Assembly (NCBI GenBank): GCA_023512835.1
Contig: CM042091.1
Location: 37,524,107-37,588,106, forward strand
DNA length: 64,000 nt
Source of the DNA: Taxillus chinensis
Taxonomy: Eukaryota > Streptophyta > Magnoliopsida > Santalales > Loranthaceae
Reading direction: 5' to 3'
Positions 21,194 to 58,524 of this stretch are shown in pieces; the first letter of the stretch is position 1, and every line of letters starts with the position of its first letter. Below the pieces are notes generated by a model. That model was not told where the DNA came from and searched no databases. It saw only the letters and a list, made by a program, of their open reading frames with translations. The translations under genes were made by a program, and so were the position numbers.

Positions 21194-22555
21194 TGTTGGT
21201 CCCTGGGAGCCTAGAGGGGGGTGAATAGGCTCTTATGAAAAAATCTTTTCTTACTCTTTGGCATTACACTTATCTAGTTAAGAGATAGAATCAATGCGGA
21301 AGATGACCAAATAGTGGAAGTATTTTGCTTTATTATCAACGGATAAGTACAACAAAATAGAAGGAGATTAAAGCTTGTAAAGCCTTTAGATCTACTACAA
21401 GACTCTCTTAAACTCTGTTTACAAAATGACTCACACACTAGCCTCTATGATCTCAATAGCTCTAGTACACACTTATTTCAAACTCACGAACGATCAACAC
21501 CTTCAACACATTTTTGAATGTACAGGTGTTACAATATATATAGAAACATCCTTGAGAGACAATCTTGGAACTTGTTCTTTCGGACTATGTGCAGCATTGA
21601 CTGTTCCTCGGAATTCTCTCTGCCTTGAATGCTGCGGATGTGGAGCTTAAGGTCTTGGGTTTGTAAAGCATAAGTGCCTTTGTGAGTTCCCAAGTTTAGT
21701 TAAAGTTGTGTCCACATATCCGGGAAATCCACGTGTAAGATTCTTTAGGTTCTCAACGAGTTTGTCTTACACCGGGACTTAACGAGTTGATGACTTTAAA
21801 TGTGAAGAGATAAGTTGAATCAGCGTCTTCCAAATCCGGTGTAAGTTTCCTTACTCAATGTTAACTAAGCTCGGATCCTTACTCCGTGTCAGTGATTGCT
21901 TACTCCGTATCAATTCAATACTAGAATCCTTATTCCGTGTCAGCGCTTCCTTACTCCATATGAATGAGAAGGTCTGAGTGCTTACTCCGCATCAGCGCTT
22001 TCTTACTCCGCGAGAGTTCCTTACTCCGCATGACTTAAAAGATCGGATGGCTTACTCCGTATCAGCACATCCTTACTCCACATGAGTAACAGGTTCGGAT
22101 TCCTTACTCCGCATGTATAGAAGACTTGGATGTCTTACTCCGTGTCTTCTTTTCCTTAGTCCGCTTGAGTGGAAGACTTAGCCTTTTACTTCGTGATAAC
22201 TATGTCTTACTCCATGCGACTTGTAGGCTAGGATTCTTACTCCGTATCTATTTGAGTTAGTCCGTTTCAAGTGTTAGGCGCAGATCCCTTAGTCCGTAGC
22301 TTTAAGGGATAAGTCCGCACGAATGATCCTTATTCCATATGAAGCAGAGACTTGGTTATATACCAAGTGTTTGACGACACTCACTCTCGTCCGGATCAGG
22401 ATTATATATCTTGTCTTGTAGCTTTGTTCTTGCGAGTGTAGGTTCGGATTAAGTTCATATCTTCTGCAATAACTTAAGATGAAAGCAACCAAAGTTTGAA
22501 ATCAAATTATATGGGGTTTTATCAGCATCATCCAAATTTTGGGCTTGATCCAACA
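21194..22555 (-). repeat. copia element B 3' LTR (1362 bp)
   Basis: Plus orientation TGTTGGTCCCTGGG ... TTGATCCAACA, followed by aatctcccccaatt, the complement of the purine tract ttgggggagatt. Contains the ttactccg repeats typical of the family. Confidence 0.9.
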
Positions 22556-27155: not shown

Positions 27156-30100
27156 TTACATCAGGTAGGGGCTTGGTAAGTATGTCTGCGAATTTATTAT
27201 CCGTAGCAACATGTTCAAGTGATATGTGCTTTTTGAGAACATGATCTCGGATGAAGTGATACCCGACTTCAATGTGCTTCGTTTCGGGTGCATAACGGGG
27301 TTGTTGCTGATAGTAATTGCACTCGTGTTGTCACAGTATAATGGAATCGATGTCATGTTGAAGCAGTAGTCAGTAAGCTGACTTTGCATCGAGAGAAGCT
27401 GTGCGCAGCAACTCCCAGCAGCTATATATTCCGCCTCAGTAGTAGAGGTTGATACGGAATTCTGCTTCTTACTGAACCATGAAATCAATCTGTTTCCTAG
27501 GAACTGACAAGTACCGCTAGTGCTCTTTCTGTCGATGTGACACTCGGCAAAATCAGTATCTGAATATCCGGATAAAGAGAAGTTGGACTCCTTTGGATAC
27601 CAGAGTACCAAATTCACTGTCCCTTTGAGATACCGCAATATCCGTTTTACATAAAGCATGTGTGACTCTTTGGGATCCACCTGATATCTTGCACAAATGC
27701 AAGTTGCAAACATTATGTCCAGGCGACTTGCTGTAAGGTACAGCAATGATCCAATCCTACCTCTGTATTTAGTCACATTTACTGATTTCCCGGCAGAATC
27801 AGGATCTAACTTTGCATTGACTGGCATGGGAGTCTTCACGAAAGATAAGGTTTCCATACCGAACTTCTTGATTAAATCCCGTGTGTACTTGGCTTGGTTG
27901 ATGAAGATTCCATCCTTCATTTGTTTAACCTCTATTCCAAGGAAGTACGCTAATTCTCCCATCATACTTATTTCAAATTTTCCAGTCATCAACTTCGCAA
28001 ACTCTTCATAAAGCTTCGGATTTGATGATTCAAAAATAATGTCATCCACGTAGATTTGTACGATTAGAGAATGATCTTTCTCTTTCTGTAAAAATAGTGT
28101 GGTGTCTATCTTCCCTTTTCTGAAATAATGTTCAAGCAAGAATTCTGATAATGTGTCGTACCTGGCTCTTGGAGCTTGCTTCAATCCGTACAAGGCTTTC
28201 TGCCTTGTGTTCAATGAAGCCCGGAGGTTGTTCAACACAAACCTCCTCTTGAAGATCTCCATTAAGAAATGTGCTCTTTATGTCTATTTGATAAACCTTG
28301 AAATTTTCATATGATGCATATGCAAAGAACATTCGGATCGCCTCAAGTCTAGCTACTGGAGCAAAAGTCTCATCATAGTCAATGCCTTCTTTTTGACGAT
28401 ATCCTTTGGCTACCAGTCTAGCTTTGTTCCGGATTACTATTCTATCAGTATTTAATTTGTTCCGGAACACCCATTTAACTCCAATGACTTGTTGCGACCT
28501 CGGCCTTGGTACTAAAGTCCACACTTCGTTCCTCTTGAACTGATTAAGCTCTTCTTGCATAGTATCTATCCAGTTTGAATCCTAAAGGGCTTCATCCACC
28601 ACCTTTGGCTCTATCTGTGACAGAAAACACGAGTAGAGGCACAGATTGGAAGTGGCTACCCTCGTTCTTACTCCAACAGTAGGATCACCAGTCACTTGAT
28701 CTGATGGGTGGTTCCAAGTCAACCTAATAGTTCTACGCAAGTGGTGGTGAGTAGTTAATAATTTGAAGCTCTGCCAGATCGGATGGATCTTGTACATCTG
28801 CTGGTTGAGCTTCTTTCAGGCCAATTGTATCCATAAGATGAACAGTTCCGGAAGAACTTGGAGGTTCTTCAGCACTATGACTTTCAGCATTAACTGGTCC
28901 GAATGGACTTGGAGGTTCTTCGGTGTAATGAATATCCGTAACAATTTGTCCGGAGTTATGTGGAATTCCTGAGTCTGAGTCTTCTGAAGCGTCATCAATA
29001 GCATTTCTTGTTACTTCACCAGTATTAGGTGATTCACCAGGAGTTGCAGCAGGGACATGTCTGAACTGAGAATAATCAATCGTATTATCCGTATGATCCT
29101 GCGCAATTGAATTTGAAGATCCTACACTCGACCGGTCAAGGTTAGATTCATCAAAATCAACATGGATAGATTCTTCAACTGTTGGACGTTTTTGGTTGAA
29201 AATACGATAAGCCTTGCTGTGTAAAGAATATCCGACAAAAATCTCATCATCAGATTTTGGCTCAAATTTACTCCGGGCCTCTTTGCTGTTGTTTAACACG
29301 TAGCAAGCACACCTAAAAGCTTTGAAATGAGAGATTGATGGATTTTTGCCTCTCCATATTTCATAGGGTGTTTTCATGGTAACCTTATTGGTAAGAGTTC
29401 TATTTTGAATATAGCATGCAGTGGACATAGCTTCAGCCCATAGACTGAGAGGAAGCTTTGCCCCTGCTAACATTGATCTACCAGCTTTGACTAACGTGCG
29501 ATTCTTACGCTCAGCAACTCCATTTTGCTGTGGAGTCCTGGGTATAGAAAAGTCGTGCTAAATGCCCTGTTCAGAACAATAAGATCTCATATATGAAAAA
29601 TCGAACTCCGTACCGTGATCACTCCTGATGCCCTTGATGCTCAGTCCTTGTGAATTGCTTATCCAGTTGAAGAGATCTACTAGATGTTCAAAGGTTTGAT
29701 CCTTTGATTTCAGGAACATCACCCATGTATACCTGGTGAAGTCATCGATAACCATGAGGGTATATCTCGCACCGGCAAGAGAAGCAATAGAAATGGGATC
29801 ACAAAGATCCATGTGAAGAAGTTGCAGCGGAGCAGTTATTGAATTAACGGATTTGCTCTTAAAGTTATGCTTGGTCTGGTTGCCGAGTTGGCATTCTCGA
29901 CAGAGAGAGTCTCTGGAAAATTTATGTTTGGGCAGACCATTTATTAAGTCAAGCGACACTAATTTAGACAAAGTCTTAAAATTTAAATGTGCGCAACGCT
30001 TGTGCCATAGCTAACTTTCTTCATCTGATGCTTTAGTGAGGAAGCATACCGGGTCAGAAGAATTATTTCTTAGGACCACTGAGTATATGTCCCCATCTCT

Positions 30101-30283
30101 TAATCCGTATAACTTAACATCTCCGGATAAGTTTTCCCTAATCGTGTAGGTGTTGGACATAAAGGAAATAGTAAATCCTTTGTCACATAAATTACTGACA
30201 CTCAACAGATTATGCTTCAAACCTTCGACTAGTGCAAGTTTAGTGATTGATACACAGCCGTTGGTTAAAGTGTCATACCCCAC
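27156..30283 (-). pseudogene. copia pol: GAG-pre-integrase, integrase, RT, RNase H (element B)
   Basis: Minus-strand order. GAG-pre-integrase and zinc finger (30283-29830: LALVEGLKHNLLSVSNL, LWHKRCAHLN, CRECQLG); integrase core with LLHMDLCDP, IRSDHGTEFDF and PQQNGVAERKNR holding D, D and E; APYEIWRGKNPS-type block (about 29370); RT ([38 protein letters not shown] at 28500-28350; active site YVDDI near 28050); RNase H (GYSDTDFAECHIDRKSTSG, TTEAEYIAAG at about 27530-27420). Domain order integrase before RT identifies Ty1/copia. In-frame stops near 30010, 29560 and 28580 and a frameshift near 28200 inactivate it. Gag and protease are deleted upstream. Confidence 0.9.
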
Positions 30284-30305
30284 AATCTTACCTTTATTGT
30301 TGTCC

Positions 30306-30797
30306 CCATATAAAGACTCAGGTCCTTATTCCGCACAAGTCATTCCTTACTCCGCATGTATAGAAGACTTGGATTTCTTACTCGTGTCTTTTTTTCCTTA
30401 GTCCGCTTGAGTAGAAGACTTAGCCTTTTACTCCGCGATAACTATGTCTTACTCCGTGCGACTTATAGGCTAGGATTCTTACTCCACATCTATTTGAGTT
30501 AGTCCGTTTCAAGTGTTAGGCGCAGATCCCTTAGTCTGTAGCTTTAAGTGATTAGTCCGCACGAATAATCCTTATTCCATATGAAGTAGAGACTTGGTTA
30601 TATACCAAGTGTTTGACGACACTCACTCTCATCCGGATTAGGATTATATATCCTGTCCTTTAGCTTTGTTCTCACGAGTGTAGGTCTGAATTAAGTTCAT
30701 ATCTTCTGCAATAACTTAAGATAAAAACAACCAAAGTCTCAAATTAAATTACATAGGGTTTTATCAGCATTATCCAAATTCTGGGCTTGATCCAACA
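30306..30797 (-). repeat. copia element B 5' LTR, truncated
   Basis: Only the first ~490 bases (minus strand, TGTTGGATCAAGCC onward) remain. It joins directly to the GAG-pre-integrase region of pol at about 30300. The outer end is intact and followed by the target duplication catga. Confidence 0.85.
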
Positions 30798-30865
30798 CAT
30801 GATCACATTTCCGGGCCCTTTGAACAGGGGCATTAATCGTCTTTTGGCAAGTTTGACTTTTTCCG

Positions 30866-30885
30866 CACTACAAGAAATCAAGCCT
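30866..30885 (+). repeat. CACTA left terminal inverted repeat
   Basis: CACTACAAGAAATCAAGCCT, preceded by the ccg target duplication. Confidence 0.92.
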
Positions 30886-30932
30886 TTAGTAAGACATAAA
30901 ATGTGTTACCATAGGATACCGTAACACTTTTG

Positions 30933-31209
30933 GGGGTGTTAGGTCTGCTTGGCTTATGAAAAATTCCCTACCTTTCGATAATACTTTTTGATGTCTTACG
31001 ATTTTATATTACAGTAGATCATAAAGTAACACATGTTATTGTCTTATGAAACATTTCTGTAAGTATTTTTTAAGCTTATTATAGCACTCTCTACATAACA
31101 CTTTTTACTGTGTTACGATTATGTGTTATCGAAAATCATACAATATGACCTTTTTGTATTATGAAAAGTAGCCAACATACCATAAGCCAAGCAGACCTAA
31201 CACACCAAA
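30933..31209. repeat. subterminal inverted repeat inside the CACTA element
   Basis: About 28 bases at 30933-30960 (tgttaggtctgcttggctta core) recur inverted at about 31181-31209 (taagccaagcagacctaaca core). The 220 bp between them are rich in gttac/gtaac motifs, probably transposase-binding subterminal repeats. Confidence 0.7.
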
Positions 31210-31498
31210 AAGGCTTATAATAGATAACACATAAATATGATAACCTTCTCAAATATTTACAATTATTAGTTACAATTTAATAAATACTTTTATATTATAA
31301 AAACTATCAATATTCAAGGAAACAAACCATCCAAAATATTATTAATATATATCCAAGCTAAGAAATAATATTCTAAAGTGTTACAACCCAAAATAATGGG
31401 CAATGCATTCAACTGATGTTGATGCATAGCTTGTCTAAGGAAACTGCAAGAAATCATTCCAAAAAATCACACTTATTTTTTTCAACATAGTTGATTAT

Positions 31499-32205
31499 CC
31501 TTCGGGAGTTCCTTCAGCATGATTACACTTTTCAATACAGCTGATTATCCTGAAACATAAGACATAGTCGCATTAAAATCATGCTCTACTGAATAAATTA
31601 AATCATGTCATTTGTAATTAAAAAATTATGATATTATATGCAGGACATACCTATGGGATGTATTATTCATGTAGAATATAGGGGAAGATGTATCCAAGCA
31701 GACTGTAAAACTGGTTACTATCATCACGTATAGGTCAGTTGTGCAAAGGATGGAAAATCACGATTTCTTAATGCTTCTTTTATTTGAAGTATCCACTTTG
31801 GAACTATCTCCTAAAAGGGATAAAGTATAAAATATAAATCGATTCTACTTTTGAACAATCTTGCACCATAAAATATAATTGCCAAACCCCCCAAACAACA
31901 GCCCAATGTAGCAGGTTATCTTTTAAATTTAGAAATTTCTTTCAAATGAATAACTGCATACCACGGCTATAATGGTAACAAGCTCATTCCAGTGTTCCTC
32001 TTTCGCAAGTTGCATGACAATGTTATCACTTCCACGTTCATTCTGAATATGTACAAACAAAAACATCAGAACTGCAAACTTGAAAGGAAACTATGAATAC
32101 TAAAAACTATAAACCCAAAGATGAGTGTAGAGTTATTAAACCTACATTTTCCTTGATCCACTTAACAAATCCACCATATAGACTACAATAAGCACTTCCT
32201 GATCC
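31499..32205 (-). pseudogene. MVD: captured fragment of diphosphomevalonate decarboxylase (mevalonate pathway), 4 exons
   Basis: Minus-strand exon pieces with splice-like borders. (1) about 32205-32142: GSGSAYCSLYGGFVKW. (2) 32042-31962, 27 codons: NERGSDNIVMQLAKEEHW then ELVTIIAV. (3) 31811-31651: EIVPKWILQIKEALRNRDF then, after a small out-of-frame stretch, VCLDTSSPIFYMNNTSHR. (4) 31549-about 31500: IISCIEKCNHAEGTPE. I recognise these, in this order, as the second half of plant mevalonate diphosphate decarboxylase, the ATP-dependent enzyme that makes isopentenyl diphosphate. The exon 3/4 joint splits the Arg codon (AG | G) at gt...ag borders, so genomic DNA rather than cDNA was captured. 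Frame disruption in exon 3 and absence of the N-terminal half make it non-functional. Confidence 0.85.
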
Positions 32206-32531
32206 TCATCTTTAACTAAACAAATAAAACAATCAACTGATACATAATACAATTCTTCAGATTGATTAAATAAGGAAACTATAGCAAACTACACATTAAA
32301 ATATAGATAACAAGCAACTAATTTTCCTAAAGAAAAATGAAACAATAAAAGTCTCCTTTCCAAAACCCATATTCAGAATGCAATATAGTTACAAGATATT
32401 TTAATATAGCATCAACTGATAAAGTAAATTATGTTCTTTTCTTCAATTTTCAGCTTTGCTTATAATTGGAGTCATATTATTAGTACTTCATCTAATGTTG
32501 TCATCTTAGCATCTATTTTTTATGTACCTAT

Positions 32532-32534
<3 letters not shown>

Positions 32535-32569
<35 letters not shown>
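32535..32569 (+). repeat. (CA)n microsatellite
   Basis: About 17 CA units in the CACTA element between captured fragments. Confidence 0.9.
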
Positions 32570-32575
<6 letters not shown>

Positions 32576-32726
32576 CATGCACAAATAGATTTAAAACAAG
32601 AGAATAATTTGCTCTCCTTATATTTATAACCTTTTACTTGTAACTTTAAAAAAAAACCGAGAAAAAAAAAAGGAAGGAGTTCTGCCACCTATCATGGTTG
32701 GTTTTTAGCGAGCAGACAAAATAGCA

Positions 32727-32732
<6 letters not shown>

Positions 32733-32776
<44 letters not shown>
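32733..32776 (+). repeat. (TA)n microsatellite
   Basis: About 21 TA units inside the CACTA element. Confidence 0.9.
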
Positions 32777-32777
<1 letters not shown>

Positions 32778-33720
32778 CCGAGAGAGAACACAAAATAGAG
32801 ATTGAGTGCTAGCTCACCATATAGACCTACAGGTGCAGTGCATGGCTTTATATTGAAATTTTTGTGGGAAAAATATTATACAGTTTTCCAAATTTTTAAT
32901 ATTATCACAAATCATTGGTGAAGGAACCTATAAGTGGTGATCATTGGTTTAACTTTCATAAACATGATGCAAATATGGAATGAAACATTAACTATTTGAG
33001 TTAAGATTCAGAATTAATTAGGATATAAACAGGGCTACACATCTTCCCATGTGAGATCAGCACACCTCCTATTCTTGTATAACCTTTACGCATATTGTTG
33101 CATTAATAAATAAAATTCCCATAGATCAAATATAACATGAAAGCAAGTTAAAAACTAAAATCACCTGGTCCACAAATACTTATTGCATTATTAATTATAG
33201 CACGCAGAGCTAGAAAGCCAGAGCAAAAAAAAAAAAGCAATACTAATTGCAAAATCAGTAAGCAATACTGCAAAATCAGCTAGTGCATGTTCTGCAGTGA
33301 TATGGGATAAAAAAGTTGCATTTGCATACATGATTTTACTGCATCCGCATGGCATAGATTGACCATAATACTGAAGCTAAAAAGCAAAAAATTAAAATCT
33401 TTGAAATAACATAAATAACCAAACTGTTATATTTAAAAAAACTGTTCTTAAAACAAACCATTCAATTCCAGAATTGCAATGAGAGATAATCAATACATGC
33501 TCATCATTTTACATTTTCCGACCTTCCATATCTCTTATCAAATGCATAGTGATGATTGTCTTGAATTTTCCTCCTACTTGAATCCCTCTAACAAAAGAAG
33601 CAAAACGGTCAACAAACGTAAATCAGCATCTCAAAAACAGAAATTGTACAATTTAGAGAAATGATGAAAGGAAAAAGGGGGTGGGCAACCAAAGAGTGAT
33701 GAATTGAAAGACATACATAC

Positions 33721-33795
33721 CCTAGCGAACTTAGATCTAGTAGCTCGAGGCATGGCAGGGACCCGATAGCCATTAAATCGATAGTCTAGCCTTTT
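33721..33795 (-). pseudogene. candidate captured exon of unknown gene (75 nt)
   Basis: Minus strand: preceded by gttgcag and followed by gtatgt, i.e. ideal acceptor and donor, and exactly 25 open codons between them, reading KRLDYRFNGYRVPAMPRA then TRSKFAR. It lies between the two recognised captured gene fragments and on the same strand. I do not recognise the protein. Chance exon-like structure cannot be excluded. Confidence 0.45.
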
Positions 33796-34291
33796 CTGCA
33801 ACACTATATATATCAGAAATCATACCAAATCTGTGGATAAGCACCCAAAGCTAACAAAAGCAAACCTGTCCGTCAACCAAACAGAAATAAGTGCTGCGCA
33901 TAATTTATTTTTAAAATATGATTACAAAAGTTAGAAGGGAAAACGTCAACTTGATGCAAATTATCAGATTAGATCAAGTGAAATCACATTAACTTAGAAA
34001 AAGGAAATCTTGATTTAGTGGAATAAAATTTCATAGCTTTGGGACATCAGGATCTGATTCAAATCCAAGATATCAAAATTCATTGGAATATATGAAACAA
34101 TAAAAAATGAAATAAAGATAGGCCACCATTTCCCTTTCCAAACATTCGATTCCTTTACAACCCCACGAGAATCTGTTATGCTCGCAAAAACCAACACATG
34201 CCACAACGCACCTTATGATGCTATGAATGATAAAATAAGACAAGAAATTGAATCAAACAAAACCCAAAGAAGAAAAACCTTAGACCCAATC

Positions 34292-34313
34292 AATAATAAT
34301 AATAATAATAATA
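34292..34313 (+). repeat. (AAT)n microsatellite
   Basis: Seven AAT/ATA units in the CACTA element. Confidence 0.9.
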
Positions 34314-34636
34314 TAGTTTAAAATGCCAACTATAAAACAAAAAATAATAAACTTTAAAGAGCCTCCATGCACAATCACAACCCAGAAAGACATAAACTGA
34401 TGAACATGTAAATCAGAGAAAGAATCTATAGAAAATGAAGTTTAATGGCATTTCCAAACACGCATGAGACCTAAGGAAGGTGAGACGGCAATGACAGTCT
34501 TCTTCTGGTTCTAGCTCTGGTCCAAGGACACAGATCGACGACCCTGGGAGCAACTAGGGTTCGATTAGATCCGGGTTACCTAAGGAAGGTGAGATATGAG
34601 ACGAGACGAGAGAGAGGAACGAGGCAAGATATGACA

Positions 34637-34940
34637 GTCTCCTTCCATTGATTTCAATCTTTATCGAATCAATAGAGCTTTGCTTTCCTGGATAACAAAA
34701 CGGTGACATTGGCATGGGGAGAGAGCATGGAAATAGATGGATAGATTAGGGAAGCAACAAAATTGCAAACCCTAGGAGAGAGAGAGAGAAACGTACAGAT
34801 CGAGGATTGAATCTTCCTCATCATCGCCAGTGGTTACGGTAACCTCTTTGAGCTCGATGATTGGAGCGACAACAACTCCAGTGTCTTCGTCTTCTGCAAA
34901 GGGACTGTCATCTTCCTCTTTGTGGGAAGGTGGATCTGGC
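34637..34940 (-). pseudogene. RANBP1: captured fragment of RanBP1 (Ran-binding protein 1), 2 exons
   Basis: Minus strand. Exon 1 piece (about 34940-34797) reads HKEEDDSPFAEDEDTGVVV then APIIELKEVTVTTGDDEED and SILDL, the acidic leader that precedes the Ran-binding domain in plant RanBP1. A 109-bp intron (34796-34688, gtacgt...ttatccag) splits the last Leu codon (CT | G). The exon 2 piece (34687-about 34640) reads KAKLY-stop-FDKD-stop-NQWKE, the start of the Ran-binding domain, with two TGA codons at positions normally Arg and Gly. Homology ends just after. RanBP1 assists RanGTP hydrolysis at the cytoplasmic side of nuclear pores; this copy cannot do so. Confidence 0.85.
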
Positions 34941-35210
34941 GGTGATCAAAGATCTATCTCTTTCCCAGCTACGGTTCGTCAATGGATGAGAGAGGGCGAG
35001 AGAGTTGTTTTTTTGTTTTGGTATGGGCGTCAAAGGAAAAGAGAGGGGTTTAAGTTTTGTGTGCCGGTAACACTTACCTTTCACCAAAAATATCCCGCGC
35101 AGACAAAATATTCGGCGCGCCATCCAACTCAAGCTGCTGCCCCGCAAAAGTTTTTTAACTTCTACCTATTGTAATACTTTTTCAATAATGTTATTCTTTG
35201 ATGTTACGGT

Positions 35211-35230
35211 AGGCCTGATTTCTTGTAGTG
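35211..35230 (-). repeat. CACTA right terminal inverted repeat
   Basis: AGGCCTGATTTCTTGTAGTG, inverted copy of the left end with one mismatch; followed by ccg. Confidence 0.92.
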
Positions 35231-36691
35231 CCGACACATTGTATTGGCCATAACTTCTTCATTTTACATTGGAATTGAGCTCGGTTGAGTGTGTTAATCT
35301 CCAAATTTCATCCCCTATCACTTGGTGTTGGTCTTGGGGCACTTTAGGAGCTTGCCACAAAGGTTATCAATTTTGGGCTTTTCTATTCATATCAATGTAT
35401 CCATCTTGTACAAATTGAGGTTAACATCAACTCCAACCCATTCCTTGGTAGTAAGGAATCCTTAAGGACCTGTTTAATAAGGAAAGGAGTTCAAAAACTT
35501 AATTATCTCCAATAATTTCTAAAATGACTATCCAGCCCCCTTTAAATATTTCCGGAACCTAACAGCCCATTTATAAGTTGGACTAAAGGGCGCTTACAGG
35601 TCACATTTTGTAAGAAATGAGTTCTAAGACTAGTAATGAAATGTTGGGATCTTGCCCTAATTATTATAATTAATGAATATAATAGGTAATATAAACACGG
35701 GTGTCATTTCAAATATCAACAAAGATAATCTAACTTATATCCTTGAAGTTTCATTTATTTATTTTAAATTTATTATTGCTTGGTTGAAGGGTTATCATGA
35801 ATGCACCCACTTGCTCTCTAATGGAATAGGTACTTCCTATTTTAGGGGCATATGAAAAATACCGTTTTTTAGTCTACTCGATAAAATAATTATCCTAAAG
35901 TGATATTGGAACTCCTTTCCTCATTAATAAAAATTACGAGGTATTAGTAGAGACAATTTATAAGATCATGAGATTGACATGGCAAATCATATATTCTGAC
36001 TTATTTGGTCATTTGGTTCTAAAAACATCATTAGATTTCGGCTATATATCTGGAGGAAAATATATTAATAAAATAGTAGTTACTCCAGCCGTAAATTTTC
36101 CGTGTATGCGTAAATAAAAGGGAAAATTTATTACTTTCAATAGACATATACTTCTAAATCGTTAGAATAGAGCCTTGTGACGTTTGATCACATGTATCTT
36201 GATGCTCCTTCATTGTAATTTGTTCTTGTAACAGATTTATATTTGCTTCATCCACATTTTGGCGCGCGGTGCTAATGTAGTCCCTGTATATTCATCGTAA
36301 TGCAGAAGATAAAGCTCACTTTTTACCCTTGGAAATTCTTGCAAGTCATCAACAAAAGATTTCAGTAGTAGAATTCAAGGTATCAAATTATTACAGGTGA
36401 TATACGTATTCGTTGAAGTTCAGTTTTCCTGTTATAGGGATTGCCTCAATCAGAAGATTGAGGTACATTTCAAGCAATGCAATAAGCCGAAACCAAATAC
36501 TCGTTGCCAGAGCATTGCGCCTGGAGTTGGAGGGATCATTCTTCTTGTTTCACCTCTCGAAAAACGTCCCCCCGCCCCGGGGGTAGAAGCCACATTTCTT
36601 AAAAGGATATAGCGTTTATTTCCCACCTCCTTTTTCTTCACCCGCATTGCTTCTTCATCTTTCTCGTTCCTTCTTGGGGCCTTGCAGGGCC
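35231..36691 (+). other. intergenic stretch, no gene seen
   Basis: AT-rich, no ORF with recognisable content on either strand. A 71-codon ORF at 36397-36612 has no family resemblance that I can name. A pyrimidine-rich leader (36610-36690, ctcctttttcttcaccc) precedes the small gene relic at 36692. Confidence 0.5.
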
Positions 36692-38585: not shown

Positions 38586-40169
38586 ATTATAACCAACATT
38601 CGTTTTCTTTTGGAAGCCCAGACTAGAAATTAGTCAAGGAACATCATTTCATTGGAGCACCCACACCCATGTTTATATATTTAATTGATGACATACATTT
38701 CTACACGTCTCTCTGTTCCCGATTGTTCCATCATTTCATTGGAGTACCTGCACACGTTTATATTTATTTGATGGCACAAATGTCATACATTTATGGTGAA
38801 ATCATTGAAATTACAGCATTACCTAATTGCTTTATCATCTCCAAGACGACTGGTGTGTAGGAGCACAGATTAATTCTGTTGAGAAGCCAATTTTGATTAC
38901 CAGTACCAACACTAACGCCTACTTGCCTGGATGGATTTAGCATAGGCTACGCCCTTGTCAACTTCATATTTGTTACATATTTTTAAAAAAACAGTAAATT
39001 TAATTTTTGTTATCCTTATGAAAATATTTAAGAACAGGACTCAAAGTTTGAATTTTGAATTATTATTTGTAACAATCGCAAACGCCTTTTTATTTGTAAC
39101 AATGATTTTGTGAATTTGAGTATAGAATCATGGTTTGAAAACAGCCACCTAACAAACGAGGCTTATAATATTTGCTCACAGTTCGAGTATGGGTATTTAT
39201 GTGCCCCTATGGTGAAACCGTGATGGTAACAGTTTTTATTTCCAACTTGTTTCCAAATCATAATAGGAAGGCATAAAAAGAACTTTTTATTCTTTCACCA
39301 CCTCTAACGCCAAACTTGACCTAAGGAGCCGCTCAATTAGAAGTTATTAACTACACTGCTTGCAGTTTAAAATTTAAAATTAATCCAATTATGGTCACAC
39401 TTTAACTAAAAGTAGCCTAAACGATAGCCCTTCAAGCGGAGCAAATTGCCAAGTCAGACGACGCGGTTTCTGTAAACAAATAAAACCAGGCAAATTACAT
39501 TTCTGGTCCCAAATGTTAGGGAGAATTTTCAATTTAGCACCGTGTTTTCAGTTCAACCAATCGAGTCCCTCATTACATAACGCCCCTCATTACATAAGGC
39601 ATATGAAATTTTTATGGAAAACACACAGGGTTTTGTATCTAAATTTTTTTGTGCCATAATCGGTAACATCCATATTTCCATAATTCCTTCCATATTCATA
39701 TCTTTTAGATGGTTAGTTTTAAGGGATAAATAAAATACAATTAGATAAGACCAAAAAAAATCATAAAGAATATCCTATTATATATATTAAAAAAGGATAA
39801 ATATATCGCTTGTAAATTGTAATGTGACTCTCTGGCTCCTCCTACCCTTTATGAAAAAAAAGAAAAGATTCCTTCCATCTTTTTAATAAATTTGTAAAAA
39901 TTTACAATGGCAATTGAAAATGCACCCCAAATTAGGGACTGAAGTGTAATAATAGTGCTGTTCAGAATACAAAAATAAATAAAAAAAATAAAAATAAAAA
40001 CCTACCCGCCCCGCGTCTTCAAAACTAAATGACCGGAGACAAAGACCAAACCACCCTCCCATCCGTTCAATTTGTAGTCGTCATCTCCTCACCCTCTTGC
40101 CTCTTCCTTCCCACCGCCTTCTCTGATTTTCTAAAATTCCAATTCCAATTCCAATTCCAATTTCTTTTC
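38586..40169 (+). other. upstream region of the calmodulin-like gene
   Basis: AT-rich, no ORF of note. The last 40 bases before the ATG contain a run of aattcc repeats (about 40138-40163), likely 5' UTR. I cannot place a TATA box with confidence. Confidence 0.4.
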
Positions 40170-40652
40170 ATGGCCTCGCTGCAATCGGAGCAGCTTCGAC
40201 AGCTGAAGGACATCTTCAAGAGGTTCGACATGGACTCCGATGGCAGCCTCACCCAGCTGGAGCTCGCGGCCCTGTTGCGGTCCCTTGGCCTCAAGCCTTC
40301 CGGCGATCAGCTCCATACCCTCCTCGCCAACATCGACTCCAACGGCAACGGATCCATCGAGTTCGACGAGCTCGTCGCCGCCATCCTCCCCGACATCAGC
40401 CAGCAGGTCCTCATCAACCAGGAGCAGCTCATGGAGGTTTTCCGATCCTTCGATCGCGACGGCAACGGCTACATCACCGCCGCGGAGCTCGCCGGCTCTA
40501 TGGCCAAGATGGGTCAGCCCCTAACGTACCGGGAGCTGTCCGAGATGATGCGGGAGGCCGACACCAACGGAGATGGCGTCATTAGCTTCAACGAGTTCGC
40601 TGCCATCATGGGCAGGTCAGCTTCTGATTTCCTCGGCCTCACCGTTTCGTGA
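40170..40652 (+). CDS. CML: calmodulin-like Ca2+-binding protein (CML16/18-type), 160 aa
   Basis: Single-exon gene; start MASLQSEQLRQLKDIFKRFD chosen because the upstream in-frame extension (to 40029) is low-complexity and not CML-like. Four EF-hand loops, each with acidic positions 1, 3, 5 and 12 in place: residues 20-31 (DMDSDGSLTQLE), 56-67 (DSNGNGSIEFDE), 95-106 (DRDGNGYITAAE) and 131-142 (DTNGDGVISFNE). It should therefore bind up to four Ca2+ and act as a cytosolic/nuclear sensor that changes shape and binds targets. Length and a C-terminal tail after EF4 (MGRSASDFLGLTVS) fit the CML16/CML18 group; no transmembrane or signal segment, no C-terminal prenylation box. Codon third positions are strongly GC-rich, unlike the surroundings. 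This is the only intact host gene in the window. Confidence 0.95.
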   Translation: MASLQSEQLRQLKDIFKRFDMDSDGSLTQLELAALLRSLGLKPSGDQLHTLLANIDSNGNGSIEFDELVAAILPDISQQVLINQEQLMEVFRSFDRDGNGYITAAELAGSMAKMGQPLTYRELSEMMREADTNGDGVISFNEFAAIMGRSASDFLGLTVS

Positions 40653-41637
40653 TTGTTAAAATTTGTTTAGATCCCGTGATGTCATGTCCCGTCGCGTCAT
40701 CAATTCATTGTTGTCCACGAAAACAATCTTTGTCTGGTCGCTCGCGAACTTTTCCTTCCCCCTTCGTTCTTGTCCCTCCGCGCCCCACCCCGCACCACCC
40801 CCCCCCCCCCCCCCCCCCGCTTATTATTTTATTGCTTATAGGTTAATCGTTGAACTACAGAGTATTTTCTCTGAGCGTGTCTAATGTGGTCCTCTGTAGT
40901 TGAGAGAGACTTCGTGTATGTACAAAGAATGCAACGAGATTTCAAGGTAACTGATCAAACTTTCTCACGGAAAAAAGGCAATGTGAATTCTTGTTAATTT
41001 GATTATGACTTTTGTAAGTAACGCCTGCCTTATCCTCCACTTGACAGCGGACATACATTTGCATTCTTTTCTGATAAGCCAAATTAGATATTCATATATA
41101 TTGGATCAAATATAATTTTCTTTCTTTCTTTGTTCGTATAACTGACCCCATGTTAGGCTTGCTGGTTTGGTTTGGTTTCATTTGGTTTATAAAGGATTTA
41201 GCATTTTGATGTTTCATGAAGCTGGCATCCTTCAAATTTTGTTTGGGTGGTTCATCACGAGGGAATTATGTTCCTCAGTGCTGCCTCTTTTTGAGGTGCT
41301 ACTTCTTTTCCGTGTGATCCTTCCGTACTAAATGAATGTGAATATGTTTTTCTTGTTCTGCTCCTCTCCAGTCCCCTTGTTTCATGGATGCTTTACTGGT
41401 TAAGTTTTCCGTATAAGTTGTCAGTCAAAAAAAACACTAACATATAGAAGCACAAGCCATCTTGTATATTTTGTAGTACAAGTTTCAGCATTGCTTGAAT
41501 GGTTGTATTGAATATCTGACACTTATTTGAAAGCCCCTATATGCATAGATTTATCTGAGACAAGCTGCCTTGTATAAAATTTAACCTATTAGCATGGAGT
41601 TGAGAAAAGTAATGAGTGCTTTAATTTAAATCTGTGA
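40653..41637 (+). other. 3' flank of the CML gene
   Basis: Probable 3' UTR then non-coding sequence. A run of about 20 C at 40799-40818 interrupts it; its exact length is unreliable in sequencing. No further ORF recognised. Confidence 0.5.
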
Positions 41638-41925
41638 GAGCATCAGGTGTAGCCTTTTTAAATTTTTAGCTAAATTTGTCGACATGGAGCAATATGAGCC
41701 ACAAATTATACTCGAGATCTGTGTTTTCAATACAAACTTTATTAAAACCCAAACATCGAGACACCAACTATCTAAATTTGGTTAAATTTAAATAACCATT
41801 GCTTCGATGTTTGGGTTTTAATAAAGTTTGTATTGAAAACACAGATCTCGAGTATAATTTGTGGCTCATATTGCTCTATGTCGACAAATTTAACTAAAAA
41901 TTTGAAGAGGCTGCACCTGATGCTC
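41638..41925. mobile_element. long-hairpin MITE (288 bp)
   Basis: Ends GAGCATCAGG and CCTGATGCTC. Almost the whole element is two inverted arms of about 120 bp (for example actcgagatctgtgttttc at 41711-41729 and its complement at 41836-41854) around a loop of about 45 bases. A 3-bp repeat tga flanks it (41635-41637, 41926-41928). GAGCATC ends and 3-bp duplication suggest the PIF/Harbinger (Tourist) type, though the usual duplication is TTA/TAA. RNA from it would fold into a near-perfect hairpin. Confidence 0.75.
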
Positions 41926-41928
41926 TGA

Positions 41929-43078
41929 CTGTCTGCAATGAGTAGGATTTAATTTGTGCGTATCATTTTTTGTTTAGGATGTTAACTAAGGCCATGGTCA
42001 AGGAAGTCTCTTGTTGTGTTAGTTGTTGCCAGATTCTAATAACCATTTTAAGTGAGCCTCCTTGTAGTCGAATTTGGGAGTTTATTTGGTCAAAGTTGCT
42101 GGTTATGGTATTCCACATTCTCGACCCTATGGAGGAATATTTTGCGGGCTCAACAAAAAAACCTATGCTATTAAGACTTAGTAATAACATTATGTGTTTT
42201 TTGTTTTTTTTCCCAAACATGCTTTTGCAGTGGAAAACAAAACCAACAACTCAAAAATATAGTTGCAAACATATAATAATTTTAATGATAATAAGGGCTT
42301 TTTACTAAAATAAAAACAAAAATCAAATAAAAGGCTTAAGAAATTCAAAACTCAAAATTTTCAAACCGTAATGACTTTCCATTTTGTTGCCTACGCAATT
42401 TAACAGATTGTCCTGGTATCATACTCGATTGAGGTAGCATGCGCCCTTGTAAGAGCACCTGGCATTGGCTTTATCAAGTTAATGTCAAAATTTAATCAAG
42501 AAAGATTATTTTTTTTATAAATTTAATGAACTCCTTCAAAATATGCTCCCAGAATGTCATTACCAGTGCCAACTATCCGGCCACTTCTTCAACACGGAGT
42601 GAAAATTTTCAAAGAAAAGAGGTGAGGGGTTAGAAATATTAAATCTAAAATCATTGCTTGATATTACACTTCACTTCGTTGTACAAAGGAAGTTGCACAA
42701 AATGGTTTCCATGGCCAAAAACATGATGACCGTGCCCCCCCCCCCCAATGCCCAACCCCCCCGACCTTCATCCCGCTCTTTCCCGCGGTGTCGTCCTCCC
42801 ATTGCACCTGGCATCATCCCCCACCTCATAGGCAGGCATTGTTTCGCAACGACGTGAAGCTAAAGACTCGAAGCCCATTCCATGAGCATTGATGATGCTA
42901 AGGTTTCTCGCCAAATTTAATAAAGGTTTTACATTTAGTGTAGCTAAAGCTAAATATTTAGCTTTTAATGAATCCAATGAGAACATATTTTATAAAAAAT
43001 TATTAAAAATTACATTTGCATTGGTCTTTAGCGAGACCATGTCATGCTCTAAGGATCCGCAATTTCAAATATGTCTTG
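41929..43078 (+). other. intergenic stretch, no gene seen
   Basis: AT-rich with a C-run at 42737-42748. Small ORFs on both strands have no recognisable content. Confidence 0.5.
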
Positions 43079-44960
43079 TGTCACGCCCCCAAATTCCAGG
43101 GAACCGGAACTAGGAACATGACTTCCCCTTGCCCGCACCCGATAGGTCAAGGGGTTGGTGACTAGCACCAATAGAGACTACACCGCGGGTCTTGTCTCAA
43201 ATATGCAACCCCGTACATACCATACATCAAGGGTAATCCTGTACTTTCCCATACATCATCATGCATACAATAAGTCAAACAATCATACGACATCACATCA
43301 CAAACAAGATGCAAATATAATCGTCCACGGACTCATGTCCGGGATACAAACATAATACAATACACAATACGGAATACGTATTGTATCATACATCGAGTAG
43401 TGGGCACGTCCTTCTAGAAGAAAGTCCTCCACTAGTCTCGGGTCACACCTGAAAAAGGTAAACAACAAGTAGGGGTGAGCGACAAGCTCGCAGGTGACCC
43501 CAACACTCCACATCATGCGGACATACAAGTCTATACTACATGCTCGTGTATTCGTGCACTTGTGTAGTGTGCACAATCATCGGACTCGGCCGCAAACAAA
43601 CATCAGGACCTAGCTTGCCCACACGGGACAGCTTGTCCACGATCCTCAACAAGATCCCAGCTCGGGGCACTCAGCCCCTACCACGGCCTATATGCCGGAC
43701 ACAGTCGCCACACCGGCCTGCCATCGGTGCATATGCCTGCCATGTCAACCACATCGCACCATCGGTGCATCACGGTGAGAACCCAGACAAGTCACGGAGT
43801 CCATGTCCCAATACCTCACACCAACATACTAACATTAGTATGGCATGTTATTCTCAACATTTCCTTTGGAACTATAGCCAGTCTTCACAAGTAAATCCTC
43901 AATCCTTGATTTATGAAGGAAGTACCCATAGCAGCTATTTTCTTGAAATTAAAAGTCCCGGCATTGGGTTCCCATAGCATAAATTAGATAATCTGATTTT
44001 TGGGGATTTTTCTGAGATGTCTAACCCCACTTTCCAAAAATTCACCACTACGAACTTTTGGGTTTTTCCGAGATTTTGCACTAAATCCCAATTTTCACAT
44101 TTTGAAATAGTGGGAATTAATTTTTCTAGTATTTTTCTTTGAATCCAAATGGGGGGTATTTCGTTATTTACATTGTAACTTAAGTACTTAAATGTGTAAA
44201 ATGTGTAGATGGGTATGGGTTGCAATGTAAATAGGTCAGATCCAATCAAACCGTATTTCGAATCGCGGTGAAACTACATTTTCGAATCCGCATTTCGAAT
44301 CTGTATTTTCGAATCTCTTTTCGAACTGCCTTCGACCCTCGAACCTACACTCGAACTACCTTCGAAAACTACCTTCGAAGTACCCATGAACTGCCTTCGA
44401 AACTCTCCTTCGAAGTACCTTCGAACCTTTGAAATGATACTCGAAAATTTCACATTCGACACTCGAAATTACACTACTTCGAACCTTCGAAACTGCACAT
44501 TCGAAATTTCCAATTTCCAGTCGATCTCATCGGTCGTTCTCTACCGATTCACGACGATTCATCGTTCATCATCGTTTTTCACTGTTTCTCGTCCTGGATT
44601 CAACCTGGAATCTCATAAAACTCATACCTAATGCTATATATTAGGTTTTAAATCACGTCTTACCCCTCAGAACGCATTTAAATACAAGATTCAACCCAAA
44701 ATTGGTTTTTCCCCAAATTCTAGGGTTCAACACGAATTTGCATGATTTCATCAAATTCTTACATGTTAATTCAAAAAAAAAAAACAGCAAGAAAAGGGTG
44801 AAGAATCAATGGAACACCTACTTGGAATGATTCTTGATGCTTGAACGAGCTCAAAACGCCCCAAATCGAAGGCTCCAAGCTTCCTTCTCTCTTTCTCTCT
44901 CTAAGCTCTCCAACGCAGATGCAGAAACGCTGAAACGTAACGTGGAAGCTCTCTTTCCCC

Positions 44961-44969
44961 CTATTTATA
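44961..44969 (-). promoter_or_regulatory. LTR TATA box (array LTR 1)
   Basis: Minus-strand TATAAATAG followed by GGGGGAAAGAGAGC, a typical plant core promoter. Conserved in LTR 2 (52695-52703) and LTR 3 (60397-60405). Confidence 0.75.
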
Positions 44970-44978
44970 TTTTTGCCA

Positions 44979-45226
44979 GTCAACTGACCTAGTCAACCAT
45001 TGACCCAGTCAATAATTGACCTCCAAAGCCCCAAACTCCAAATTGAGTCAAACTACAGTCAAAGCGCTCGAAATGACGAGCACAATACTAGACTGATATT
45101 ATTACACCCAAATGACCGCTCAAACGCAAAGTTAACCAAGAGACCCCGAAAAGTCAACAATCGGGTCAAACGGGGCCCCGACTCGGAATCGGGCCCAAGT
45201 ACAGTCAAAATGCTCACATTGACGGC
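44979..45226 (-). promoter_or_regulatory. W-box (TTGAC) cluster in LTR U3
   Basis: Eleven TTGAC/GTCAA cores in about 250 bp, on both strands, directly upstream of the TATA box. About 0.5 would be expected by chance. TTGAC(C/T) is the binding core of WRKY transcription factors. Confidence 0.65.
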
Positions 45227-45560
45227 TACACTACCGTCCAGATAGTTACATTCCCATAGAATGACTATCTCTCAAGACTACCCAAATACGAGTCTTTACA
45301 TCCTCCCCACCTTAGGACTTTTCGTCCTCGAAAATAAAACACATGCCCAAAAGACATAGCAAAATTCAAGCTCAATGTCCCAACAACAAAACATCAAACA
45401 TGATCACCGATCACATAGGTCCAATGCAACTCACAACAAGCCAAAAAGGCTTCACAATATCTAACAACAACAAGCTAAACCACATCTCAAACAACATATG
45501 CAAAACAAATGCATAAAATATAACTCATACCTCAGGGAAGGTCCTCACATCCTCCCCACC

Positions 45561-48500
45561 TCAGGACTGATCGTCCTCAAACAGCTCAGGATGAAGAATC
45601 CGTATCTGGCTCTCTTTCTCCCAAGTTTGCTCCTCCATGCCTCGGTGTCGCCATAATACCCGAACTAGTGGGATCGTCTTGCCCCGCAAGACCTGGTCCC
45701 GCCTGTCCAAAATCTGTGCCGGCATCTCAACGACGGCACCATCGTCAGCCAAGTCGATCTCGTGATAGTCCAACACATGAGAAGGATCTGGGTGATACCG
45801 CCTCAACTGAGACACATGAAACACATCATGTACTCGGGCCAACTCCGGTGGCAAAGCTAACCGATAAGCCACTGCGCCCACGGTGGCAACAATCTCAAAC
45901 GGCCCCACAAAACGAGGGGAAAGTTTGGATCCACGTCCAAACCTCCGATGCCCTCGACGCGGTAAAACCCGCAAAAATACACGGTCACCCACCTCAAATT
46001 GCAGGGGTCGACGCCTCTGGTCCGCGTAAGACTTCTGCCTACTCTGTGCTGTCAACATACGCTGTCTAAGCAACTGCACTATCTCCGTAGTTTCTCGAAC
46101 CATATCAGGACCGAGAACCGCTGTCTCTCCGGTCCGTGCCCAACACAAGGGTGATCTACAAGGCCGCCCATACGGCGCCTCATACGGAGCCATCCCAATC
46201 GTGGCTCGATAATCGTTGTTGTAAGAGAACTCCACCAAAGGAAGGTGAGTCTCCCAACAACCTCCAAAATCTAGGACACAGGCACGCAACATATCCTCGA
46301 GTGTCCGAATCGTCCGCTCCGATCGACCATCCGTCTGCGGATGAAAGGTCAGACCGAGGTTCACCCTAGTACCCAAGGCTCGCCGCAATTGTCTCCAAAC
46401 CGAGATGTGAACCTCGCATACCGATCGGATACAATAGACAATGGGACTCCATGCAACCGCACAATAACATCAATATACCTCGTCCCAAAGTCCTCACCTG
46501 GGTCTGTCTCTCGAATCGGAATAAAATGTGCCGATTTGGTCAACCGGTCGACAACTACCCATATAGTGTCGTGTCCCCTGAAACGAGGAAGTCCAGTGAC
46601 AAAATCCATGGTCACGTGGTCCCATTTCCACTCGCACCTGGCAATGATCGCAACTCACCACTGATCTCAGGTGCTCTGCCTTGACCTCGACAGGTCAAAC
46701 ACCTCCTCACAAAATCAGCAACGGCCTTCTTCAGGCCTGGCCACCAAAATCGCCTCCTCATGGCATGGTACATCTTGGTCCCACCAGGATGTACACTAAC
46801 CTCGACCTGGTGAAATTCCCGAAGAACCTCCTCCTGAAGAGAGTGGGAACTATCAATCTACCCCTATACCGCAAACACGTGCTCGCATCCTCGGTCCACC
46901 AAGAAGATACCGCCTCATCGAATCTCGTCGCGGATGACCTCACAATCAACGTCCCCTAGCCGATCCTCTATGATCCCGTGCCGCATCTCTGGGACCGCTA
47001 CAACAACACCGAGGGTCCCTCGCCCCTCGCTGGTCACCATCTTGCAACCTCATCGCCGCCAATTGACCCATCATCTCCCATTCCTTAATGGCACAATGGG
47101 CCACCATGGCCCTGCTCTTCCTACTCGAGCATCTGCCACCACGTTACCCTTCCCAGGGGTATACATCATATCAAACCGAAACCGTTGGTGTACTCCACCC
47201 ACCGCCTCGTCTAAGGTTCAAGGTCTCGCCGAGAGAAGATATATCGCAAGCTCTTGTGGTCCGTATACACCACAAACTTCTCCCCAAGGAGATAATCTCG
47301 CCAACTTTTAAGTGCAAAGATCATCGCAGCCCAACTCCAAATCATGCGTGGGATAGCTCTCGCTCATGTGGTCTCAACCGCCTAGACCCATAAGCAATCA
47401 CCTGCCGAGTCCGCATCAACACACAACCAAGTCCCACCCTGGAAGCATCACAATACACCTCAAAAGGCACACCCTCCTGTGGGAGAATCAAGATAGGTGC
47501 CGAGGTCAATCGTGCCTTCGGCTCCATGAAAGAACTCTCACACGCATCGGACCAAATGAAAGGAACTCCCTTCCTAGTCAAGTGTGTCATAGGAGCTGCC
47601 AACCTGGGAAAAATCCTCCACGAACCTCCGATAATAGCCTGCCAAACCAAGGAAGCTACGAATCTCAAACACATTCGTGGGCGTCTTCCACGACATGATC
47701 GCCTCAATCTTCTCGGGATCCACCGTGATACCCTCCGAAGATACCACATGCCCCAAGAAGTGCACTGTTGCAACCAGAAGTCACATTTTGTGAACTTCGC
47801 GTACAACCGATGCTCTCGCAAGGTCTGCAACACAACCTGCAAATGCTCCTCATGCTCCCTCTTGGTCGCTGAATAGACCAAAATATCATCGATGAACACC
47901 ACAACGAACATATCTAAATATGGAGCAAACACCGAGTTCATCAATCCCATAAACACTGCTGGAGCATTCGTGAGCCCAAACGGCATCACAAGCCACTCAT
48001 AATGCCCATAGCGACAACTAAACGCGGTTTTAGGGATATCTGCCTCCCTAACCCTCAACTGATGGTATCCAAATCTCAAGTCTATCTTGGAAAACCATCT
48101 CGCACCTCGAAACTGATCGAACAGGTCATCGATCCTCGGCAATGGATACCTGTTCTTCACAGTCACCTGGTTCAGCTTCCGGTAGTCTATACACAACCGA
48201 AGTGAACCATCCGCCTTCTTGGCGAACAACACTGGAGCGCGCCCACGGTGAGCTACTCCGCCTAATAAAGCCTCGTGCCAATAGATCATCTATCTGTCTC
48301 TTGAGCTCTCTAAGCTCTGTCGGTGCCATCCCGTAGGCCGCTAACCTGATCGGTGTTGTCCCTGGCAACAACTCGATCGAAAACTCTACCTCCCTTACGG
48401 GTGGCAAACTGACCAAGTCCTCGGGAAACACATCCGGGAACTGATCTACAATGGGTGGCAAAACAGCCTTCCCCTCTCTCCTCCTGTCAACCAATGTCAA

Positions 48501-50380: not shown

Positions 50381-50792
50381 CACACTGGCCGCAACAACAA
50401 ACAACAAACGATCAATACTAGCACTGCTAGCACAAACAGCCATCAAAGGCACAACCGACTTGTAGGTTCTCACCACACGACCCGTAGGTCCATACCATGC
50501 ATATAGCATCATGTCCCCCATCAAGGTACACCACACTCAAGTCCTGGCTCTCACGGCCACGTGCCATCCTGGCACCAAATGCAATCATATCACACACAAA
50601 GACAATCTAGTGCCCTATATGCACACAATCATACCACTAGCAATGCACCCTATGTATGCTCCTAGGATGATCTAACTGACACCAACATAACTTAGAATAC
50701 CCGTAAGGACCGCGTTGATCAGGCGCCCTCCCTACGCTTTTCCAAGTCACATGGAATCAATTAACCACCCCTCACTAACCTAGGTCCGCTAG

Positions 50793-50812
50793 ACCATGCT
50801 CTGATACCAACT
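50793..50812 (-). other. primer binding site, tRNA-iMet type (array unit 1)
   Basis: Minus strand AGTTGGTATCAGAGCATGGT next to the LTR end GGCGTGACA. An identical site lies at 58505-58524 for unit 2. Confidence 0.9.
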
Positions 50813-53028: not shown

Positions 53029-53288
53029 TCCTCCCCACCTTAGGACTTTTCGTCCTCGAAAATAAAACACATGCCCAAAAGACATAGCAAAATTCAAGCT
53101 CAATGTCCCAACAACAAAACATCAAACATGATCACCGATCACATAGGTCCAATGCAACTCACAACAAGCCAAAAAGGCTTCACAATATCTAACAACAACA
53201 AGCTAAACCACATCTCAAACAACATATGCAAAACAAATGCATAAAATATAACTCATACCACACGGAAGGTCCTCACATCCTCCCCACC

Positions 53289-58504: not shown

Positions 58505-58524
58505 ACCATGCTCTGATACCAACT
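58505..58524 (-). other. primer binding site, tRNA-iMet type (array unit 2)
   Basis: Minus strand AGTTGGTATCAGAGCATGGT directly inside LTR 3. Confidence 0.9.

What the first reader, a model, noticed from the sequence alone, without database searches (positions are those of the whole stretch)
30866..35230. Gene-capturing CACTA transposon holding pieces of at least two unrelated host genes
Both ends, a 3-bp target duplication and no transposase define a non-autonomous CACTA element. Inside are exon-intron pieces of diphosphomevalonate decarboxylase and RanBP1, both on the minus strand, plus a possible third exon. Seen: ends, duplication, exon motifs, splice borders. Known: Pack-type CACTA elements capture genes in some plants. 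Inferred: a single chimeric antisense or sense transcript could feed small RNAs against two housekeeping genes.
Basis: partly seen in the sequence, partly recalled or inferred. Interest (0 to 1): 0.75.

Follow-up and report, generated by a model that had tools for sequence, protein, structure and literature searches.

The report
Jumping gene packed with gene scraps
This is a plant DNA transposon with no detected transposase gene of its own that carries pieces of at least four ordinary plant genes; close copies with the same pieces sit elsewhere in the genome, and related copies keep the same ends around other contents, so the family records how such elements collect genes.

Summary
The element at 30866-35230 has near-perfect CACTA ends, a CCG target duplication and no transposase detected. 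It carries minus-strand pieces of diphosphomevalonate decarboxylase (MVD), RanBP1, a telomere repeat-binding protein (TRP) and an S28 carboxypeptidase, plus pieces related to two unidentified loci. The host plant genome (521 Mb) could be searched intermittently. It holds likely donor loci for all six pieces and three further copies with the same cargo (96-97% identical by column; two complete, each with its own target duplication), so the assembled cargo has moved. Five other complete members share only the left ~530 bp and up to ~600 bp at the right, including RanBP1 sequence, and have other interiors; one (L030) carries aminopeptidase M17 pieces. The RanBP1 piece has the same outer breakpoint in seven of ten members tested. 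This fits one old capture followed by other captures further in, though three members differ. The coding pieces are broken, so a protein role is unlikely. The small-RNA idea is untested; few exact 21-mers are shared with donor exons. This is a Pack-CACTA element: a known kind, with an unusually readable capture history.

The parts
30863..30865 (.). target site duplication, left (CCG)
   Evidence: matches 35231-35233
30866..30885 (+). left terminal inverted repeat CACTACAAGAAATCA-A-GCCT
   Evidence: 15/15 then 4/5 identical to the other end
30866..31396 (+). left family module (~530 bp) shared by members with other interiors; rich in subterminal TAAYAC motifs
   Evidence: 11 motifs in 355 bp, 0 of 300 shuffles reach it
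30901..31232 (.). 332-bp imperfect palindrome inside the left module
   Evidence: score 82, best of 200 shuffles 33; folding z about -6.5; 7 of 7 other members examined also exceed 100 of 100 shuffles
31390..31479 (-). MVD gene block 3 (86% to donor C7:3.68M)
31505..31862 (-). MVD gene block 2 (88%): exon D 31549-31497 (its last bases run past this block), intron, exon C 31810-31651 with frame breaks
   Evidence: Pfam MDD_C 4.6e-5 for the frame at 31629-31757
31859..32427 (-). MVD gene block 1 (91%): exon B 32042-31962, intron, exon A 32205-32146, upstream intron sequence; 789 bp of the donor, including the exon for residues 207-235, is missing between blocks 1 and 2
32501..33004 (.). two blocks (32501-32909 at 74%, 32943-33004 at 89%) related to C6:3.55M, unidentified
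33255..33537 (-). serine carboxypeptidase S28 gene piece (84% to C1:22.25M)
   Evidence: donor ORF is Pfam Peptidase_S28 E 1.4e-10; the element's own piece gives only E 0.006 to a solved S28 enzyme
33537..34474 (-). telomere repeat-binding protein (TRP/TRFL) gene piece: about 667 bp upstream, exon 1 33807-33721 (ATG is ATA here), intron 33720-33588, part of exon 2; 88% to C2:9.39M
34485..34639 (-). piece from C8:5.92M (83%), gene not identified; strand is that of the match, not of a known gene
34638..34936 (-). RanBP1 gene piece from about codon 5: exon 1 to 34797, intron 34796-34688, part of exon 2 (two in-frame stops); 78% to C5:9.86M
34937..35230 (-). right family end; sequence like 35005-35230 is found at 40 or more places in the genome
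35211..35230 (-). right terminal inverted repeat
35231..35233 (.). target site duplication, right (CCG)

Best explanation
A non-autonomous Pack-CACTA transposon, one of four close copies in a family that has accumulated genomic (intron-containing) pieces of host genes in several steps. Shown: CACTA ends and target duplication; genomic pieces of MVD, RanBP1, TRP and S28 peptidase plus two unidentified loci; matching loci in the same genome; the assembled cargo at three sites with different target duplications; related members with the same ends and other interiors; one RanBP1 outer breakpoint shared by most tested members. Inferred: a transposase supplied in trans moves it; the matching loci are the donors; new DNA enters when two nearby copies with compatible ends are excised as one unit, so that older captures tend to lie towards the ends; the element has no coding function. 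The stated confidence is for the element and its multi-step history; for the fusion step itself I would put about 0.5.
For: Ends and duplication. Gene identities. Likely donors: MVD C7:3.68M, TRP C2:9.39M, RanBP1 C5:9.86M, S28 C1:22.25M; none of the fetched donor stretches has a CACTA end within 2 mismatches. Copies L026 and L027 are 4360 and 4355 bp with duplications AAC and ATC. Five complete members with other interiors share about 530 bp left and up to about 600 bp right (aligned pieces of 120 bp or more); their duplications are CTT, TAG, ATT, AGG and CTT. RanBP1 outer breakpoint at L032:3671/3672 in 7 of 10 members tested. The C8:5.92M locus gave neighbouring pieces to the window's subfamily and to L030/L034/L039, in each case next to RanBP1. 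The tandem-excision model and its prediction that newer DNA lies internally are in PMC8903248 (section 9 read).
Against: Three of ten tested members (L036, L037, L040) begin RanBP1 at 3704, not 3671, so a second capture is not excluded; the RanBP1 tree groups them with the genes, support 0.85. Different inner ends of the RanBP1 piece (3882 to 4393) follow trivially once the outer end is shared and prove no order by themselves. The MVD tree leaves the gene between two element groups, so one or two MVD captures cannot be told apart. Donor identity does not rise steadily towards the middle (RanBP1 78, C8 83, TRP 88, S28 84, C6 74 and 89, MVD 86-91%). No inner terminal repeat of a fused neighbour is clearly recognisable. 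No autonomous partner was shown: the transposase search did not complete.
Confidence: 0.9

Rival explanations
1. Same kind of element, but cargo was gained by faulty gap repair (template switching to other loci after excision) rather than by fusion of neighbouring copies.
For: Patchwork of short blocks with overlaps of 7, 4, 1 and 2 bp at four junctions (alignment edges, so approximate) and unassigned stretches of 10 to 250 bp at others; 17-bp and 15-bp direct repeats beside the RanBP1/C8 junction; 789 and 388 bp of the donor missing inside the MVD copy.
Against: Constant ends with exchanged interiors and the shared RanBP1 outer breakpoint are also what the fusion model predicts; the two models are not exclusive.
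Confidence: 0.35
2. The element is retained because its transcript, carrying pieces of several host genes and a 332-bp palindrome, yields small RNAs that dampen the donor genes.
For: Exact 21-mers shared between element exons and donor loci: MVD 16 of 274, TRP 16 of 98, RanBP1 3 of 150; the four identified gene pieces lie on the same strand; strong hairpin at the left end.
Against: No transcript or small-RNA data. RanBP1 homology starts after the ATG, so no RanBP1 promoter was taken. The palindrome is found in 7 of 7 other members examined, so it needs no such role. 0 of 150 exonic 21-mers are shared with the second RanBP1 locus L042.
Confidence: 0.07
3. The captured pieces form a working chimeric gene.
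For: Splice borders are preserved: five GT-AG introns with fitting joins.
Against: No in-frame ATG for RanBP1, TRP start lost, two stops in RanBP1 exon 2, frame breaks in MVD exon C. The longest ATG-started frame in one simulated spliced transcript is 54 aa. 11 of 47 MVD columns invariant in five eukaryotic enzymes are changed, including the Arg of GSGSACRS. All four copies are broken, partly in the same places.
Confidence: 0.02

Closest known systems
Pack-CACTA elements (Arabidopsis, maize, rice; PMC8903248, abstract and sections 4, 9, 10 read)
   Same: CACTA ends, no transposase, coding fragments from several loci, copies at several sites; that paper reports that in maize Pack-CACTAs hold the most distinct loci among Pack-TYPE elements and that interiors are less repeated than ends
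   Different: Here one captured gene piece (RanBP1) sits in the shared right part of several subfamilies whose other cargo differs; that paper's stepwise example (one gene, then a second) is a maize PIF cluster
Tgm-Express1, soybean (PMC1947982, abstract and section 3 read)
   Same: 5.7-kb CACTA element with intron-exon pieces of five host genes (unknown protein, CDC2, fructose-6-phosphate 2-kinase, malate dehydrogenase, cysteine synthase)
   Different: Other genes; Tgm-Express1 sits in a gene's intron and its exons are spliced into that gene's transcripts, whereas this copy lies near retrotransposon sequence and no transcript is known
Pack-MULEs and gene-carrying Helitrons (as described in the introductions of PMC8903248 and PMC1947982)
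   Same: Transposons carrying several gene fragments
   Different: CACTA ends and a 3-bp duplication here

Membership tests
CACTA superfamily | Terminal inverted repeats starting CACTA | tested here: met
CACTA superfamily | 3-bp target site duplication | tested here: met
   CCG here; equal 3-bp flanks in 7 of 18 related stretches fetched; in the other 11 an end was missing, cut off or unrecognised, or the flanks were unequal
CACTA superfamily | Subterminal arrays of short direct and inverted repeats (as described in PMC8978399, passages seen) | tested here: met
   TAAYAC 11 times in the left 355 bp, 0 of 300 shuffles; right end weaker, 2 copies, 6 of 300 shuffles
Pack-CACTA | No transposase (non-autonomous) | tested here: met
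   19 hand-picked frames show no transposase in Pfam; donor-related blocks make up 3163 of 4365 bp; remnants below Pfam sensitivity are not excluded
Pack-CACTA | Coding DNA captured from host genes between the ends | tested here: met
Pack-CACTA | Mobilised with cargo | tested here: met
   L026 and L027 carry the same cargo and their own duplications
Pack-CACTA | Moved in trans by a related CACTA transposase | not tested
   PF02992 search was asked four times and never answered
Expressed chimeric gene | Open frame kept across copies | tested here: not met

The most novel reading that the evidence does not exclude
The RanBP1 piece has become a working part of the family's right end, for example as a sequence helping copies to be excised or to pick up neighbouring genes, so that the family acts as a cassette vector with constant ends and exchangeable gene cargo.
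Probability: 0.08. Interest if true: 0.65.

Novelty: new member of a known kind. Interest (0 to 1): 0.42.

Why it matters
How DNA transposons pick up gene pieces is still argued largely from models. Here one genome holds likely donors, four copies of one product and several sister subfamilies that share the ends and an old capture. Breakpoints can therefore be compared across subfamilies to read the order of captures, and the fusion and repair models make different predictions about them. The element itself is a known kind.

Tried and rejected
First thought that a RanBP1 promoter had been captured: rejected, since homology to the donor starts 15 nt after its ATG. Thought the palindrome might be special to this copy: rejected, it is in 7 of 7 other members examined. 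A first count of shared exonic 21-mers (44 MVD, 16 TRP, 6 RanBP1) was too high because some donor stretches included intron; the strict count is. The inner terminal-repeat-like site at 31442 is suggestive only (3 of 60 shuffles reach it), and no in-register inner repeat is significant in this copy. Protein database searches for the TRP and RanBP1 pieces gave nothing, probably because few plant proteins are held (inference). A text search for peptide strings found 0 papers. A viral-collection scan for the end gave two contigs whose only window match is the end itself. Rfam found nothing at its gathering thresholds in 30000-36000. A text search for papers holding four of six terms (transposon, captured, RanBP1, diphosphomevalonate decarboxylase, telomere repeat-binding protein, CACTA) found 0; that does not show absence from print, as most subscription papers are not held. 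Catoni 2019 is not held and was seen only as cited in PMC8903248, PMC13317346 (passages) and PMC8978399 (passages). A radish CACTA element with the end CACTACAAGAAAA is in PMC7210773 (one passage).
Full report
What was checked. The element runs from 30866 to 35230 (4365 bp). Its ends are perfect inverted repeats over 15 bp, with four of the next five bases also matching, flanked by CCG on both sides. The left end is dense in TAAYAC motifs (11 in 355 bp, 0 of 300 shuffles; the right end has 2, 6 of 300 shuffles). Nineteen hand-picked reading frames give no transposase in Pfam; the only match above a cut-off is the MVD C-terminal domain.

Cargo. Reading the minus strand from the right end: RanBP1 exon 1, a 109-bp intron and part of exon 2. 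Joined, they read DLKAKLY-stop-FDKD-stop-NQWKE and match RanBP-type domains. Next come a C8:5.92M piece, then a telomere repeat-binding protein piece with about 667 bp of upstream sequence, exon 1, a 133-bp intron and part of exon 2. Then an S28 carboxypeptidase piece, two blocks related to C6:3.55M, and three blocks of MVD with four exons and three GT-AG introns. The TRP identity first rested on a protein recalled from memory (76% over 25 aa, E 4.8e-7, 44.3 bits against a best of 30.0 in 100 shuffles). It is supported by the matching locus, whose frames read MVLQKRLDYGFNGYRVPAMPRATRSKLAR and RDSSRRKTQDNHHYAFDLLATVAGRLL. The recalled TRP1 matches solved telomere-binding domains at its C-terminus; Pfam found nothing in the donor's second exon, so the family name at the N-terminus still rests on recall.

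Donors. The window lies at G000:C8:37524107-37588106 in a 521-Mb genome. MVD: C7:3.683-3.685M, 91%, 88% and 86% in three blocks; the fetched locus covers probe residues 65-412 and has the exon for residues 207-235 inside a 789-bp stretch missing from the element. TRP: C2:9.39M, 88%. S28: C1:22.25M, 84%, Pfam E 1.4e-10. RanBP1: C5:9.86M, 78%, a locus matching probe residues 1-202 in pieces; a second RanBP1 locus at C9:16.06M is more distant. C8:5.92M is 83%; C6:3.55M is 74% and 89% in two blocks; neither gene is identified. None of the eight donor stretches has a CACTA end within 2 mismatches, but several are only 0.8 to 3.4 kb long.

Copies. L026 and L027 are complete, with duplications AAC and ATC. 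L028 lacks the outer 23 bp of the left end. Kimura distances are 0.0095 (L026-L027), 0.028-0.030 (window to these) and 0.039-0.041 (to L028). With a recalled plant rate near 1.3e-8 per site per year these splits are under about two million years; that rate is from no call. The copies share some breaks: no RanBP1 start and one exon 2 stop in all four; the other exon 2 stop is in the window copy alone.

Family. Of 18 stretches fetched around places hit by the RanBP1 piece (out of 34 matches), 7 are complete elements with equal 3-bp flanks: the two copies above and L030, L031, L034, L036 and L040. These five share with the window the left ~530 bp and up to ~600 bp at the right. L030 and L034 are alike at 98% over most of their length, and so are L036 and L040. 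L030 carries peptidase M17 pieces (1e-6 and 2.2e-9); seven other frames of L030, L031, L036, the TRP donor and C8:5.92M gave only a weak RanBP1 match (L036, 0.039) or nothing, and the interiors of L034 and L040 were not scanned. Ends like these occur at 40 or more places each, a floor set by the search: 40 of 346 left-end and 40 of 280 right-end candidates were scored. Most of those places were not checked for RanBP1.

Order of capture. The outer RanBP1 breakpoint is at donor position 3671 or 3672 in 7 of 10 members tested and at 3704 in the other 3. Inner ends lie at 3882 (L038), 4005 (window, L029), 4022 (L030, L034), 4067 (L031, L035) and 4393 (L036, L037, L040). Given a shared outer end, different inner ends are expected and add no evidence of order. 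The C8:5.92M locus is represented next to RanBP1 in the window's subfamily (positions 308-456), in L029 (308-384), and in L030, L034 and L039 (449 or 471 to 666). TRP, S28 and C6 pieces were found only in the window's subfamily, which supplied 3 of the 12 members compared. The simplest order is RanBP1, then C8:5.92M, then the rest; this is inference. MVD cannot be placed: L053 and L054 have the left module plus an MVD piece, and the tree does not say whether that is the same capture. Donor identities alone give no clean order.

Left module. It holds a 332-bp imperfect palindrome, also significant in 7 of 7 other members examined (0 of 100 shuffles each). In L036 and L040 it spans nearly to the terminal repeat (positions 6-402). 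It may be the remnant of a small foldback CACTA element, which would suit the fusion model, but no inner terminal repeat is recognisable in the window copy.

Function. The coding pieces are broken. In MVD, 11 of 47 columns invariant in five eukaryotic enzymes are changed, against 0 to 6 of 47 to 53 in leave-one-out controls. A protein role is unlikely. Few exonic 21-mers are shared exactly with donors (MVD 16 of 274, TRP 16 of 98, RanBP1 3 of 150), so small-RNA action is possible but unsupported.

Known kind. Pack-CACTA elements with several donor loci are described (PMC8903248, sections read), as is Tgm-Express1 with five gene pieces (PMC1947982, abstract and section 3). This element is a further member; its sister subfamilies make the capture history unusually readable.

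Noticed in passing
window 43079-60737: LTR-interior-LTR-interior-LTR tandem arrangement of a Gypsy-like element; two 10-kb units 96% identical, with SH3_Tf2-1 hits and a sub-cut-off integrase hit.
   Followed up: partly
window 40029-40652: Open 207-aa EF-hand (calmodulin-like) frame, apparently a host gene.
   Followed up: partly
window 41634-41929: 296-bp self-complementary stretch, 89%, perhaps a miniature inverted-repeat element.
   Followed up: no
window 30342-30797: Repeat that ends 68 bp left of the CACTA element, with copies at 22099-22555, 19988-20473 and 4284-4760.
   Followed up: no
L041:3893-5192 (C2:26.785M): Deletion derivative of this subfamily: left part to 31811 joined directly to 34876-35230, with a 4-bp overlap; flanks CTG and GTG are unequal.
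   Followed up: partly
L050, L052 (C5:32.81M, C8:33.71M): Further MVD-like pieces covering residues 65-209 only, with no CACTA ends in the 3.3 kb fetched; whether element or gene copies is unknown.
   Followed up: partly
L037:2380-5195 (C6:36.92M): Family member with about 1.6 kb more between its RanBP1 piece and right end than L036 or L040, including stretches resembling sequence upstream of the RanBP1 gene in L032 in the other orientation.
   Followed up: no
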